From Pirellulales bacterium (lineage in GTDB: Bacteria > Planctomycetota > Planctomycetia > Pirellulales > S012-138), in contig JALCBR010000043.1 in NCBI GenBank assembly GCA_028066245.1, forward strand, positions 1-38,570: DNA of 38,570 nucleotides, in the 5' to 3' direction. The notes beneath the pieces were generated by a model. That model was not told the DNA's origin, ran no database searches, and worked only from the letters and a program-made list of their open reading frames with translations. A program made the position numbers and the translations under genes. Shown here piece by piece: positions 13,065 to 38,570 of the stretch (positions are counted from its first letter, which is position 1; each line of letters starts with the position of its first letter).

Positions 13065-16000
13065 CTAACTTGGCTGTGCCGGCATCTCGGCCAAGACTTT
13101 CTCCAGCGTTTGCACCAGCCGGTCAGCATCGGCGTGTTGAAAACACAAGGGTGGCTTGATCTTGATGACGTTGTGCAACGGGCCATCGGTTGAGAGGAGG
13201 ATGCCGTGCTCTTTGGCACGCTCGACAATGTAGGTCGCTTGTCTCGCCGCTGGGTCACGCGTTTGACGATCGTTGACAAACTCGAGTCCCAGGAACAATC
13301 CCTTGCCGCGTACGTCACCCACCAGCGGAAACCGGCTCATCAGCTCGACAAACCGTGCTCTGAGTGAATTGCCGACCTCTAAGGCGTTTGCTTGCAACCC
13401 TTCATCACGGATGACATCGAGAACTGCGAGTCCGACTCCGCAGGACACAGGATTTCCGCCGAAGGTATTGAAGTATTCCATCCCGTTGTCGAACGCCGCG
13501 GCGATCTCCGGGGTGGTGACAACGGCGCCCAGTGGATGGCCACCACCGATGGGTTTGCCCAGCGTGACGATATCCGGCACCACATCTTGCAATTCAAACC
13601 CCCAGAATGCCTCTCCCACACGGCCGAACCCGACTTGGACTTCGTCAGCGATGCAGACTCCGCCCGCAGCATGCACGGCCGCATAGGCATTTTGCAGATA
13701 ACTTTCCGGTAGGACGATCTGCCCCCCGCAGCTCAAGATCGATTCGCAGATGAAAGCGGCGGGCGGAGTTCCTTGCTGGCGAAGGCTTTCTACAGCTTGG
13801 GAAACGTGTTCAGCGTATCGAGCGCCGGCGTCGGTTCCGCGATGTTGTCCACGGTAGACATCAGGCCCGGGCACAATGGTCGTCTTAGCACCGGGCCCCT
13901 CACCGCCTGGACCGTTGCACTTATAGGCACTGATCTCAATCAGCGATGACAGGTTTCCGTGGTAAGCGTGATCCACGGCGATCACATGCCTGGCTCCTGT
14001 GGCAGCCCAGGCGAGCCGTAACGCCAGGTCATTGGCTTCACTGCCACTATTGACGAAAAAGCAAACGGACAGCGGATCGGGAAACAACTCGGTGAGTTGC
14101 CGTGCGTATTTAACAATTTGAGGGTGCAGGTAGCGGGTGTTGGTGTTGAGCAGCGCCTGCTGGCGTTTAGCGGCATCAACGACGTGCGGATGACAATGGC
14201 CGACGTGTGCCACATTATTGACACAGTCCAGATATCGACGCCCTTGGCTATCCAAAAGGAATTGCCGATGGCCGCGAACAATTCTTAGCGGCTGTTGATA
14301 GGAAAGGCTGAGGTTGCGGCCCAGCTTGTCGCCACGCTGCTGGCGAATTTCCGTGGTGGATGTTTCGCCATAGGTGGCTTCGTCGTGCGAGAGCCGCAAC
14401 ATCAATGCAGGGTTTGGCGAAAGGCTGTGCCAGAGTGCGCGATCGCTCCCGCGGCCAACTCCGGGAAAATCGCCAGTGGCATCCAGAGGATCAACAATCA
14501 ACTGAAAGTGCAAATGCGGCGGCCAACCACCATTGACGGGCAGATCGCCCAGCGTCGCAATTTGTTGACCGCGTGTGATCTTTTGGCCAACTGTCAACTT
14601 GTCGAGTGATTCACAGCTCAAATGTCCGTACAGTGTCCAGAAGGAGATCGTGGCATATTGGTCGCCTTGTTCGGCAGCGGGAACATCGTGACGGAGAATG
14701 ATTGTCGGACCATAGTCCAGCGGATTCGCATTGTTCTGCATTCCATAGACGACACCGTCGCAGGGTGCAAAGACAGGGGTTCCTGCGACCGCAAAGAGGT
14801 CGATGCCGACATGAATCGTCCGCCATTCCGCATTCGGATTGCCGGCCGGGGCGAACACATCTGACGCATAGACGGTCCGCGGTTCATCGTACCGTCCGAT
14901 TCCCAGTGGCACACCGGACTGCTCCATCATGCCAAACATGGCGGCCGTCAATTGTTCCGGATCGGCCATCTGTTCAAACGAGTCGAAGTCACCGCTGGCG
15001 ACGGACAAATCAAACGTCATCCGCGGACCGGTCATCAACTCCGCTGGCAACACATATGCAAATTCATTTTGTTGTTGCCGGATCCAATTCGTGACAGATG
15101 ATGACTGCTGGCAAGGTTCAAGTCCGCAGACAAGGCGAAATCGATACTCTGCCCAACGGGGGTGGATGCTTCGCAACTTTTTCAGTGCCTGCCAGGCTGA
15201 CTGTTGCGAGACAAGCAGGTATTCATTTTCCGTCGCCTGTGACCCTTGCCGCGCGGACATGCAAACGCTTACGCACAGACGCAGGCAGATGAGATCAAAA
15301 ATGACCGCCAACTCGTCGGCAGTCAGGGGAAGCACTTCATGATAGCCGGCGACAACATCGCAGGCGGTTGCCAGGGGATCATCTTTGTCCAACAACGCAT
15401 ACGCGCAACCGACGGCAACTTCGCAGACAAGCGCCGTATGGACGATGTCGCCTAGATCAATCAGCCCTGTGATGGAAAGGCCGTGAGCTTCACCGGCGTC
15501 GCTAGAACGGCCACCATCTCCCGGGGCAGGACATTGGAATGACGCAAGCAAGTTGTAGTCATTGCCGTCATTGTGAATGATCGATTGTCGTAGACCGGCC
15601 AAGCGTTGCGAAAGTTCAACTTCAGCAAACCGTTGAGTGAAATGGGCAACAATTGCCTGCTGGTCTGGCGCAATGATGTGGTTTGCGTTTTCGGCAATCG
15701 TCTGCTCACCACGCCGCAGATCCCAGAGAAACTCGCGATGAGCGGCAGGATGTTCAAATCCTACCAATGCCTGATCGACCTCCGCCAAGGTCCGACCAAC
15801 CTGCTTCATCAACGCGGAAGAATGAGGAGTAACACGCGCCAGCGGCGTGCCAGGCAAGTATTCCAGCAAGCGAACCGTTAGCTTTTGCGGGCCGAGGTCA
15901 ACAACGTCAACCAACGTGCTACCAGTTGTCGAGGGAACAATTCTTGGCGTCAAACGCCGTGGAAGTTCGGTCGTCAGCCGCTCCAGCATCGCGTTTTGGC

Positions 16001-16205
16001 ATTCTAGCAAATCGCGAGAGGCAGCCGGGTGAGCGATCTTCAGCACATATTGCTGCTCGTCATCGCAAGAAAGCTGGAAGTTGCGGTCGCGCTCGCTGTC
16101 CAACTCCTTGACCGAAATGACATTCAGCCCGAAGTGTTCCAAGGCGATCTGGCTCGCCTGTTGCTGACTAACGGCGGGCCGGTCTCGAATATCTTCAATG
16201 ATCAT
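13065..16205 (-). CDS. Trimodular fusion: APH-type kinase, M23 peptidase, class III aminotransferase/phospholyase-like
   Basis: One uninterrupted 1046-residue frame holds three domains. Residues 1-360: aminoglycoside-phosphotransferase/hydroxylysine-kinase-like fold with the catalytic HNDGNDYN loop (His211, Asp213, Asn218) and the metal-binding Asp250 (LIDLGD). Residues about 440-605: M23/LytM zinc peptidase with a full ligand set (His465/Asp469 in HVGID, His528 in YGHLS, His564/His566 in HLH). Residues about 620-1046: PLP class III aminotransferase with NSGSEAND, Asp854 ([11 protein letters not shown]) and Lys884 ([11 protein letters not shown]). The last is closest in look to the AGXT2L phospholyases acting on phosphoethanolamine or 5-phosphohydroxylysine, so kinase and lyase could act in sequence on one amino alcohol or amino acid. 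The peptidase's part is unclear. The gene lies 48 bp downstream of an inositol-phosphate-synthase-like gene. Confidence 0.9.
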
Positions 16206-17561: not shown

Positions 17562-18471
17562 TTTCCGGAAATGAACCGAGAATGACGAGGGTGGGGACTA
17601 ACCTCCGGCGGCCTTATTGCAAACGGCTTGCCATTTGAGATCAATCGAGATTCTGGAGAGATAAGGAGGACCTTCGTTTGCAGTCAGCTTAGGGATCGCC
17701 AAGCCCTGAGGGCGACCCCCTATCATGAACCCCGGCGCGCTACGGCGTCAAGCGGCGGAATGGGGATTGCAACTATCGAGTTCTGCCGGGGGCTCAACCA
17801 AGCAATCGAGCAGAGATTCTCTCGCCTGAAAATGAACGGCTATTCGTGCCCAAGTTGGTGTCGATTGGCGCACAGATGCGTTACTTGGCGCGACAGGAAG
17901 GTGGCTTTCACGCACGATCAAAGGCGCCCTCACCAAGGCTACACCAGCAAGCTAGAGCGCTTTCTTGTCGACGCTCCGTCGCAGCAATGGCGAATTCGGA
18001 TGTTGTTGAAGTGTTGGAAACGGCAACGGATGCGAGCAGAACAGAAATCAATAAAGCGCTCGATGAACATCTCTCTGATGGTGTTCTTTCGTCGGCAGTT
18101 CCCATCGCTTCGCGGACGTGAAACTGAATTGCCGCGGCGTTCCGCGCGCCCTGCTCTGATGCGTACGGGCGAAATTGACATTGGTCAAATTTGGGGGGTG
18201 TTTCGTGCCGCCCTGCGCGCTGCTGAGCGCCATAGGGGGTTGACGGTTAACATGCTACTGAACGTAACGTCAAGGTTGTCGGTGATGTTTGCGGTCCCGT
18301 TGCTGGCCCATTGCACGGGCGTGAAGCGTTTGCGCCACCCCCCTGGAGGATGGAAAAATTGACCAATGTCAATTTCGCCCGTACGCATCAGAGCAGGGCG
18401 TGTGACATTCCATCGCGGGATGACTCGACAGCGTCCGTTCGGACGAGCGGAACAGCAATCGGACAGGCGCT
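17562..18471. other. Long intergenic region carrying an inverted-repeat element
   Basis: This 910-bp stretch between two minus-strand genes is the largest non-coding region in the window. Its right half holds the inverted repeat described separately. The left half (17562-18146) shows a GC-rich imperfect dyad near 17690-17735 and a short frame at 17987-18121 (44 codons from MANSDVVEVLETATD) that looks protein-like but has no ribosome-binding site. A 244-codon frame on the plus strand (17628-18362) runs through it, but its composition (many Arg, Cys, Trp) is that of non-coding sequence. It must also hold the rtcB 3' UTR and the promoter of the inositol-phosphate-synthase-like gene. Confidence 0.5.
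18147..18400. repeat. 254-bp inverted-repeat element with perfect 42-bp arms
   Basis: Bases 18147-18188 and the complement of 18359-18400 are identical over 42 bp (core cgtacgggcgaaattgac then attggtcaa). Inside, GGGGGGTG (18193-18200) pairs with CACCCCCC (18336-18343), and TTGACGGTTA (18240-18249) pairs with TAACGTCAA (18265-18273) with one bulged G, so the whole unit could fold into a long hairpin. Open frames of 67 codons run arm to arm on both strands (18159-18362 plus, 18185-18388 minus), both opening MRTGEIDIGQ because the arms are the same. The partial copy at the window end has AGG where this ATG is, which argues against coding. No transposase is present, so a MITE-like or structured-RNA unit is most likely. 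Confidence 0.88.
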
Positions 18472-18475
18472 CTAG
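18359..18475 (-). repeat. Right arm plus ~89-nt outer flank, reaching into the rtcB stop codon
   Basis: Read on the minus strand from 18475, the sequence starts ctagagcgcctgtccgat and continues 89 nt to the conserved core at 18386. The same flank, of nearly equal length (90 nt) and roughly 70% identical by eye, precedes the core of the copy at 38433. The unit therefore extends beyond the perfect 42-bp arm. The TAG of rtcB (18472-18474) is part of the terminal ctagag. A CGTCCG/CGGACG mini-hairpin (18432-18445) lies within. Confidence 0.75.
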
Positions 18476-19935
18476 CCTTTGATCACTCCAATTGGGCGCA
18501 TGCGGGCAACTTTCTTGGCCAAGCCGGCGGTGTGAACGACGTCTACGACGGTATCAACGTTCTTGTAGGCGTCAGGCTGTTCTTCCGCGAGCCCCTTCCA
18601 ACTGCGAGCCCGTGCGACGACGCCTTGTTGCAACAACTCTTGATCAATCTTGCGTCCCTGAGCGTGCTTGATAGCCTTGGTACGGCTCATCACACGACCG
18701 GCTCCGTGGCAAGCCGTGCCGAACGTTTGTTCCATGCTGCCGACTTGCCCTGCCAGCACCCAACTTGCCGTACCCATATCACCAGGAATGATGACGGGCT
18801 GGCCGATGGCTTGATACGGTTCGGGCGTTTCCGGATGCCCAGGAGGAAAAGCGCGGGTTGCGCCCTTGCGGTGCACCCACACGTGCTTCTTTTGGCCGTC
18901 CACGTCATGCTCTTCACGCTTGGCGATATTGTGAGCGACGTCATAGATCAGCTCCATGCCAAGCTGCTCCCAGTTGCGGCCAAAGACCTGCTCAAAGACC
19001 TCGCGCGCCTGCCACATGAGCAACTGGCGGTTGCACCATGCGTAGTTCGCGGCGGCACACATGGCGCCCAGGTATTCCTGACCTTCCGGGCTGTTGATCG
19101 GCGCACAAGCGAGTTGCCGATCAGGAAGCTCAATGCCGTACTTGGCCGGAGCGCCGCGGAGGTTCTTCAATGCGTCATCACAGACCTGGTAACCCAATCC
19201 GCGCGAGCCGGAATGGATCATCACGCAAACCATGTCTTTTTCCAGCCCCATGGCTCGTGCCGACTGTTCATCAAAGATCGCATCCACGATCTGCACTTCC
19301 AGGAAGTGATTTCCTGACCCGAGCGTGCCGCACTGGCTGCTGCCACGTTCGAGCGCGCGATCACTGACCAAATCCGGCTCTGCGTCATCGATGCAACCGT
19401 GAGCCTCGGTAAAGCGGAGATCCGTTTCGGTTGCCAGCCCCCGCTCTTTCAAGTAGCTAGAGCCTTTGAGCATCAGCTCCCGCAGTTCCTTCTTGTTAAA
19501 CGTGTAGCGACCATCACGGCCCACGCCTGTCGGAATCGCGCCAAAGAGCGCGTCAACCAACGGCTTTTGGCGTTGCTTCGCATCTTGGTAGAACAAGTCA
19601 GTCCGCATCAATCGGACGCCGCAGTTGATGTCATAACCGACGCCACCTGGGGAGATCACGCCGCCTTCGTTTGGGTCTGTTGCCGCGACACCACCGATGC
19701 AGAATCCGTATCCCCAGTGAATGTCCGGCATCGCCATAGATGCGCGTTGGATTCCCGGCAAAGTGGCGACATTGGCCACTTGCTCAGGTGCTTGATCAGC
19801 ACGGATGAGTTCAATCATCGCATCATCCGCAAAGATCAAACCGTCAACGCGCATCTCCGGCTTGTAGCTCTTGGGGATCCGCCAGAGGGTTTCGTTGACC
19901 TTTTCCAACGGTCCTTTGTATGTCGCCTTTGGCAT
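18472..19935 (-). CDS. rtcB: RtcB-type RNA-splicing ligase
   Basis: RtcB joins RNA 2',3'-cyclic-phosphate or 3'-phosphate ends to 5'-OH ends with GTP and Mn2+, in RNA repair or tRNA splicing. The 487-residue protein shows the family hallmarks: MPDIHWGYGFCIGG, SPGGVGYDINCGVR with the metal-binding Asp102 and Cys105, LGSGNHFLEVQ, MIHSGSRGLG, YDVAHNIAKRE, and FGTACHGAGRVMSR with the guanylylated histidine. The C-terminal VARMRPIGVIKG is typical and complete. Its stop codon coincides with the outer end of a repeat element. It follows coaD by 142 bp on the same strand; no archease or RtcA gene is in view. Confidence 0.96.
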   Translation of the reverse strand: MPKATYKGPLEKVNETLWRIPKSYKPEMRVDGLIFADDAMIELIRADQAPEQVANVATLPGIQRASMAMPDIHWGYGFCIGGVAATDPNEGGVISPGGVGYDINCGVRLMRTDLFYQDAKQRQKPLVDALFGAIPTGVGRDGRYTFNKKELRELMLKGSSYLKERGLATETDLRFTEAHGCIDDAEPDLVSDRALERGSSQCGTLGSGNHFLEVQIVDAIFDEQSARAMGLEKDMVCVMIHSGSRGLGYQVCDDALKNLRGAPAKYGIELPDRQLACAPINSPEGQEYLGAMCAAANYAWCNRQLLMWQAREVFEQVFGRNWEQLGMELIYDVAHNIAKREEHDVDGQKKHVWVHRKGATRAFPPGHPETPEPYQAIGQPVIIPGDMGTASWVLAGQVGSMEQTFGTACHGAGRVMSRTKAIKHAQGRKIDQELLQQGVVARARSWKGLAEEQPDAYKNVDTVVDVVHTAGLAKKVARMRPIGVIKG

Positions 19936-38432: not shown

Positions 38433-38570
38433 CTAGAGGACCTGTCCGAGTGCGCTGTTCCGCTCGCCCACGAATTCTGTGAAGTCACCCCGAAGACGGG
38501 AGCTCACACACCTGCCTCTCAGGCGTACGGGCGAAATTGACATTGGTCAAATTTGGGGGGTGTTTCGTGC
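38433..38570 (+). repeat. Third arm of the repeat family, truncated by the window end
   Basis: Starts ctagaggacctgtccgag, 48 nt after the polX stop. The first 90 nt correspond, by eye at about 70% identity and almost equal length, to the outer flank of the rtcB-side arm (18475 down to 18387). The next 48 nt (38523-38570) are identical to 18161-18208, including the GGGGGGTG tract. The rest of this copy lies outside the window. The ATG found in the other arms is AGG here. Confidence 0.82.

What the first reader, a model, noticed from the sequence alone, without database searches (positions are those of the whole stretch)
18147..18400. Long perfect inverted repeat that could fold into one 254-bp hairpin
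Two 42-bp arms match without error although the 170-bp interior does not code for a recognisable protein. Internal complementary tracts (GGGGGGTG/CACCCCCC and TTGACGGTTA/TAACGTCAA) continue the pairing inwards. Perfect arms in non-coding DNA imply recent origin, active copying or selection on structure. No transposase, integrase or known riboswitch pattern is present. It could be a MITE-like non-autonomous element or a structured RNA.
Basis: seen in the sequence. Interest (0 to 1): 0.7.

Follow-up and report, generated by a model that had tools for sequence, protein, structure and literature searches.

The report
Multicopy IS630-type MITE with internal hairpin
The hairpin is the middle part of a roughly 520-base non-coding "hitch-hiking" transposon present in about a hundred copies in this one bacterial genome, probably moved by an IS630-type transposase and inserted here exactly in the stop codon of the rtcB gene; its hairpin core appears to flip and to be shuffled between copies.

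Summary
The inverted repeat is real: 46-nt arms, 98% complementary. It is the core of a larger element. Window 17955-18472 (518 bp, between TA duplications) is one copy of a dispersed non-autonomous IS630/Tc1-type MITE: 103 + 99 arm matches in this genome, control 0; the arm pattern is absent from 395 other genomes of the order. Ends read C-TA-GAGC...GCTC-TA-G and resemble those of broken IS630 copies in the same genome. Here it sits in the rtcB stop codon; four relatives' rtcB end at the same residue. 22 of 81 insertions sit at stop codons, near the share (16 of 77) of available CTAG sites. Structured RNA and coding are not supported. Unusual: the core is less diverged than the outer parts, its alleles are shuffled between copies (293 of 325 site pairs show four gametes), and the interior is inverted in 13 of 72 copies, the window's included. 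I infer hairpin-driven gene conversion and inversion. Near-perfect arms are the exception: 10 of 59 copies reach 95%. The assembly looks short-read, a caveat.

The parts
17953..17954 (.). left TA target-site duplication (in CTAG 17952-17955)
   Evidence: homology ends here over 106 ends of the family, bases outside near random
17955..18472 (-). complete MITE copy (518 bp between the TAs); outer parts lie on the - strand relative to the family consensus, interior inverted relative to them
17955..18149 (-). outer right part (OR, about 198 bp with the flanking CTA), terminus GAGCGCTTTTCTTG-type
   Evidence: OR 1-198 matches 18149-17952, 86%
18147..18192 (+). left arm of the internal inverted repeat
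18193..18354 (+). 162-bp interior, no coding or RNA-fold signal across copies
   Evidence: the 40 scored copies of the core are 85-100% identical to this one
18355..18400 (-). right arm of the internal inverted repeat
18402..18472 (-). outer left part (OL, about 76 bp with the flanking CTA), terminus GAGCRCCTGTCCGATTGCTGTTCC, shared with an IS630 remnant
18473..18474 (.). right TA target-site duplication; also the TA of the rtcB stop codon TAG
18472..19935 (-). rtcB; its stop TAG is the TA of the duplication plus the terminal base of the MITE
   Evidence: PF01139, profile 1-426 of 426, protein 52-487 of 487; four relatives end at the same residue
38433..38570 (+). second, incomplete copy cut by the contig end (OL 38433-38502, arm 38511-38554, first 16 nt of the interior), canonical orientation

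Best explanation
It is one of about 100 copies of a non-coding, non-autonomous IS630/Tc1-mariner-type MITE (outer-left 76, arm 45, interior 162, arm 45, outer-right 198). Shown by sequence: many copies, sharp ends, TA flanks with C..G preference, ends resembling IS630 remnants of the same genome, insertion at the native stop codon of rtcB. Inferred: an IS630 transposase moved it into CTAG-type sites; insertion in a TAG stop is tolerated because the element begins with G and so rebuilds TAG. Inferred and less certain (about 0.55): the internal 45-bp inverted repeat makes the core a recombination hot spot (hairpin or cruciform broken and repaired from another copy), which homogenises and reshuffles the core, sometimes makes the two arms of a copy alike, and flips the interior; the window copy is both flipped and arm-homogenised.
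For: Copies: 103 + 99 arm matches with up to 3 mismatches, control 0; 78 distinct copies with interior in the loci held. Ends: 63 OL and 43 OR ends; C at 46 of 63 and 31 of 43, then TA, then GAGC; near-random outside. IS630: PF13358 in two loci; a deleted IS630 (L151) begins with 30 of 34 bases of the MITE left end (best in 20 shuffled windows 22); right ends of L151 and L086 agree with the MITE's at 12 and 13 of 14 terminal bases. Stop codon: rtcB ends ...GVIKG* in the window and in four relatives, whose genomes gave no match to the element; 22 of 81 insertions end an ORF of at least 150 codons exactly at the element, other frames 2 and 0 (at 100 codons 23 against 6 and 3). Core: rare letters per 1000 cells 13.5 interior, 9.8 and 13.9 arms, 28.0 OL, 27.4 near OR; in 20 loci found by their OR end mean identity is 0.924 arms, 0.854 interior, 0.789 OL, 0.788 OR; 293 of 325 pairs of polymorphic interior sites show all four gametes, r2 0.22 under 10 bp, 0.09 at 10-25, 0.05-0.06 beyond; pairs 15-46 bp apart, 93 of 97; 41 haplotypes in 59 copies at ten sites; flips 13 of 72, not clustered on the outer tree; 10 of 59 copies with arms at least 95% alike against 3.7 expected, P 0.0006. 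Rare variants in the interior are spread evenly (variance/mean 1.13).
Against: No intact IS630 transposase was found here: the two PF13358 loci are split over frames; an intact multicopy IS could also be lost from a repeat-broken assembly. L086's left end has only 23 of 34 bases in common with the MITE's, against 22 by chance. Most arms are about as alike within a copy as between copies (0.884 against 0.877 permuted, P 0.009, all of it from the 10 alike copies). Rare variants in the arms are less even (variance/mean 1.27 and 1.91). Contig ends overlap by exactly 55 bases in 3 pairs (others 46, 43, 43, 33, 26, 23), which suggests a k=55 short-read assembly; misjoins could mimic some flips and long-range shuffling. 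Most copies were found through the core; of the 28 loci found by their OR end I used 20, and one of the 8 left out (L177) has a badly diverged core. The outer tree has one starred branch, and starred branches force only 2 changes of the flip label. SbcD: only a partial match under the cut-off (49.6 against 77.65 bits).
Confidence: 0.85

Rival explanations
1. A structured non-coding RNA (or a regulatory hairpin) whose pairing is kept by selection in each copy.
For: Core better conserved than outer parts; arms at least 76% alike in each of 59 copies; strong fold of the window copy; variable paired columns of a consensus fold change mostly by wobble on the + strand.
Against: No Rfam match at gathering scores in the window. 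Interior: mean single-copy z +0.32 and +0.12, consensus z -0.5 and -1.2 on the two strands. Arms: without the 10 homogenised copies, within-copy identity (0.866) is not above permuted (0.871). Rare variants evenly spread in the interior.
Confidence: 0.07
2. The core is conserved by purifying selection at the DNA level, for instance a protein-binding site in the arms, not by gene conversion.
For: The inner arm (GTACGG.CGAAATTG.CATTGGTCAA) varies little across copies and holds TTGACATTGGTCAA, itself an inverted repeat; core less diverged than outer parts; rare variants in the right arm are uneven (variance/mean 1.91).
Against: Shuffled common alleles, flips and arm homogenisation are not predicted; rare variants in the interior are nearly Poisson (1.13).
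Confidence: 0.2
3. The flips and mosaics are artefacts of short-read assembly of a 100-copy repeat.
For: Contigs end inside the element; three pairs of contig ends overlap by exactly 55 bases.
Against: Four-gamete pairs are common within 15-46 bp too (93 of 97), inside one 55-base word. An outer-arm-interior junction (45 plus a few bases each side) also just fits in one 56-base word (inference). Flips appear also in contig-end copies (L039, L159).
Confidence: 0.15
4. The core is itself an independent mobile element (arms as its terminal repeats) that inserted into an older MITE, in either orientation.
For: Core in both orientations; core less diverged than outer parts.
Against: The copies without core that I looked at (L125, L153, L161, L174) are deletions that keep scraps of arms or lose part of OR, not clean empty sites; of 78 cores only one (L032) lacked any recognised outer part.
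Confidence: 0.05

Closest known systems
RUP of Streptococcus pneumoniae (proposed to be mobilised by IS630-Spn1)
   Same: Non-autonomous, 108-110 copies, TA target, ends like those of a resident IS630 element (PMC3049150 and PMC2229807, passages seen)
   Different: RUP is 107 bp with 9-bp terminal repeats; here about 520 bp with an internal 45-bp-arm inverted repeat whose interior flips
Correia/NEMIS elements of Neisseria
   Same: TA-ended MITE with stem-loop potential (PMC2229807, passages)
   Different: about 107 or 155 bp, with 24-bp terminal repeats; the long repeat here is internal
YPAL/RU-2 of Yersinia
   Same: inverted repeats are internal (PMC2229807, passage)
   Different: 168 bp, no TA ends, target duplications of 3-26 bp
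IS630 / ISY100 (Tc1/mariner family)
   Same: TA duplication (PMC2170065, abstract and passages); CTAG preference of IS630 (title of Tenzen and Ohtsubo 1991 in its reference list)
   Different: encode a transposase; the MITE shows no coding signal

Membership tests
IS630/Tc1-type MITE | short, no transposase gene, no coding content | tested here: met
   518 bp; no Pfam match (E up to 0.01) of the 244-aa ORF across it; core synonymous fractions 0.26-0.33 against 0.26-0.30 expected in six frames
IS630/Tc1-type MITE | multiple dispersed copies with constant ends | tested here: met
IS630/Tc1-type MITE | TA target duplication, CTAG preference | tested here: met
   TA at both end types, decayed in part of the copies. 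rtcB of four relatives of other genera ends at the same residue without the element; these are not empty alleles of the same species
IS630/Tc1-type MITE | terminal inverted repeats | tested here: met
   short and imperfect: GAGCRCCTGTCC / GAGCGCTTTTCT
IS630/Tc1-type MITE | ends shared with an IS630 of the genome | tested here: met
   L151 30 of 34 left-end bases; right ends 12-13 of 14; only broken IS630 copies seen
IS630/Tc1-type MITE | mobilised in trans by that transposase | not testable with these tools
   needs a transposition assay
structured RNA family | covariation or consensus fold better than shuffled | tested here: not met
REP/BIME palindromes | 20-40 bp palindromes tied to a RAYT transposase | not tested
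   element size and ends differ; no RAYT search was made

The most novel reading that the evidence does not exclude
A bacterial MITE family whose internal inverted repeat works as a recombination engine: about 100 dispersed copies exchange core sequence so freely that linkage is largely lost within about 25 bp, and the interior inverts in place, while the flanking transposon ends diverge normally. A natural record of hairpin-induced ectopic gene conversion between dispersed repeats in a bacterium.
Probability: 0.5. Interest if true: 0.6.

Novelty: new member of a known kind. Interest (0 to 1): 0.4.

Why it matters
It explains the hairpin and contig breaks of this genome, shows a burst of an IS630-type MITE seen in only one of the genomes searched, and shows how a CTAG-targeting element can sit in a stop codon without changing the protein. 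If the shuffling of the core is confirmed with long reads, the family offers about 100 natural replicas for measuring hairpin-driven gene conversion and inversion between dispersed repeats.

Tried and rejected
Structured RNA: Rfam at gathering threshold, 0 matches in the window; consensus and single-copy folding of the interior no better than shuffled on either strand; arm covariation not above permuted partners outside 10 homogenised copies. A consensus fold of the whole core showed mostly wobble changes at variable paired columns on the + strand, which looked promising until the column-shuffle control.

Coding: one frame of the consensus core is open throughout, but synonymous fractions are near expectation in all six frames; no Pfam match of the 244-aa ORF.

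Stop-codon targeting as an active preference: 22 of 81 insertions at stops looks striking against other frames (2 and 0), but 16 of 77 CTAG sites outside ORFs are stop codons anyway (21% against 27%), so target sequence plus survivorship suffices.

Selection on base pairing as the reason for near-perfect arms: rejected. Independent core element: copies without core are deletions.

Other genomes: exact arm patterns gave 0 in genome contigs (42 bases; 26 bases) and 0 in viral contigs (26 bases); 3 of 56 relatives gave only 29-35-base matches at E 0.003-0.004, taken as chance. Papers: no paper holds the five terms; of the 6 papers I saw passages of one (PMC3733652) and the others in the listing. 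Passages were also seen of PMC3049150, PMC2229807 and PMC2170065; the rest in the listing only. Nothing is claimed about print beyond these searches. SbcCD: weak partial match only.

Rows dropped before counts: one of 60 two-armed copies; 8 of 28 OR-end loci (core missing, cut or, in L177, badly diverged; L169 lacks most of OR); segments under 70-75% of full length. Flaw: the all-against-all BLAST failed on a typing error; its printed flanks were used, its coverage lists were empty.

Full report
OBSERVATION. The 268-nt stretch 18140-18407 folds with z about -11 on both strands. No Rfam family reaches its gathering score in the window.

COPIES. The core with short flanks (291 bp) finds many other places in the same genome, the best at 95% identity; only 40 of 152 first-look candidates were scored. 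A 29-base arm pattern with up to 3 mismatches gives 103 forward and 99 reverse matches, 0 in the reversed control, so about 100 copies. Many lie at contig ends. Among 34 contig-end loci and the two window ends, three pairs overlap by exactly 55 bases (others 46, 43, 43, 33, 26 and 23), which I take as the mark of a k=55 short-read assembly broken at repeats (inference). In the non-redundant loci held, 78 copies with interior were told apart, 60 with both arms.

ANATOMY. Aligned copies show conserved sequence well outside the arms. The element is outer left (OL, 76), arm (45), interior (162), arm (45), outer right (OR, 198). Of 45 copies with both outer parts, 39 measure 514-530 bp, the other six 358-498. 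Over 63 OL and 43 OR ends the bases outside are near random, then C (73% and 72%), TA, GAGC: a TA duplication in a CTAG-type target, decayed in part of the copies. In the window the TAs are 17953-17954 and 18473-18474 and the element is 17955-18472. A second copy begins at 38433 and is cut by the contig end.

TRANSPOSON KIN. PF13358 (DDE_3) rings in two loci, C16 and C60, each split over frames. The C16 copy (L086) begins CTAGAGCGACTCTTTGATTGCTGTTCC and ends GGAAAAACGCTCTAG. A deleted IS630 on C166 (L151) begins with 30 of 34 bases of the MITE's left end, against at most 22 in 20 shuffled windows; L086 has 23 of 34, little above chance by itself; right ends agree at 13 (L086) and 12 (L151) of 14 terminal bases. 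In one MITE copy (L127) an IS630 fragment abuts the OR part, which is cut at position 114. DNA relatives of the IS are found in 10 of 53 other genomes searched. Insertion of an IS630-family element into TA is documented for ISY100 (PMC2170065, abstract and passages); CTAG preference of IS630 is known to me here only from the title of Tenzen and Ohtsubo 1991 in that paper's reference list.

STOP CODON. The right TA is the TA of the rtcB stop TAG; the MITE supplies the G. The window's rtcB ends KKVARMRPIGVIKG*, and four relatives (75-79% identical over the match) end at the same residue; their genomes gave no match to the element. The Pfam profile also ends there. Genome-wide, 22 of 81 insertions (deletion derivatives and the IS630 remnant L151 counted in) have an ORF of at least 150 codons ending exactly at the element, against 2 and 0 in the other frames; at 100 codons 23 against 6 and 3. 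But 16 of 77 CTAG sites outside ORFs of 120 codons or more, in about 279 kb, are stop codons, so a preference beyond the target sequence and selection against gene disruption is not shown.

DISTRIBUTION. 0 of 395 other genomes of the order have the arm pattern (144 genera with the own one; no other species of the genus was among them). Exact patterns found nothing in genome contigs and viral contigs (records near the window's genome may be left out there).

THE CORE BEHAVES ODDLY. (a) Orientation: in 72 copies with a clear outer orientation (43 of them from both sides) the interior is canonical in 59 and inverted in 13 (10 of the 43), the window among them; 5 more had mixed outer parts and 1 none. 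On a tree of the outer parts (44 copies) the 10 flips need 9 changes, as shuffled labels do, but starred branches force only 2. (b) Divergence: in 20 of the 28 loci found by their OR end, mean pairwise identity is 0.924 for arms (32 rows), 0.854 interior (13), 0.789 OL (8) and 0.788 OR (15); among the 8 left out, L177 has a badly diverged core. In the core-found set, rare letters are 13.5 per 1000 cells in the interior, 9.8 and 13.9 in the arms, 28.0 in OL and 27.4 near OR. (c) Mosaics: 26 interior sites have a second allele at 20% or more; 293 of 325 pairs show all four combinations at least twice; r2 falls from 0.22 under 10 bp to 0.09 at 10-25 and 0.05-0.06 beyond. Pairs 15-46 bp apart show it in 93 of 97 cases, within one 55-base word. 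(d) Arms: within-copy identity 0.884, permuted 0.877 (P 0.009); 10 of 59 copies reach 0.95 against 3.7 expected (P 0.0006); the other 49 show nothing (0.866 against 0.871). The window copy (0.98, flipped) is one of the ten.

READING. A plain MITE family should diverge evenly along its length. A core that is less diverged, largely unlinked and sometimes inverted between older ends points to exchange between copies. The long inverted repeat offers a cause: hairpin or cruciform formation, breakage, repair from another copy, with the arms allowing either orientation. The causal step is inference; only a partial SbcD-like match under the cut-off was seen. Purifying selection on the core would explain (b) but not (a), (c) and (d), and the even spread of rare variants in the interior (variance/mean 1.13) speaks against site-specific constraint there; in the arms the spread is less even (1.27 and 1.91), so some constraint on the arms is not excluded. 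The interior has neither a coding signal nor a fold better than shuffled.

KNOWN KINDS. Closest is RUP of the pneumococcus, a MITE of 107 bp proposed to be mobilised by IS630-Spn1 (passages). By the tests made, this is a new family of that kind, unusually long and with an internal inverted repeat. I found no report of this family in the searches made, which cover openly licensed papers only.

Noticed in passing
window 13065-16205 (-): One 1046-aa ORF joins APH phosphotransferase, peptidase M23 and class-III aminotransferase domains.
   Followed up: no
window 18175-18188 and 18359-18372: Each arm holds TTGACATTGGTCAA, itself an inverted repeat (TTGAC-N4-GTCAA), little varied across copies; it resembles FNR/FixK-type boxes, as recalled, from no call.
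   Followed up: no
L125, L153, L161, L174: Deletion derivatives of the MITE that lost the hairpin core, some keeping scraps of the arms.
   Followed up: partly
L030, L068, L072, L090, L150: Composite copies with conflicting outer parts around or beside one core.
   Followed up: no
L127 (C69): An IS630 fragment abuts the truncated OR part of a MITE copy.
   Followed up: no
window 38433-38570 and the contig-end loci: Contigs of this genome often end inside the element; three pairs of ends overlap by exactly 55 bases.
   Followed up: partly
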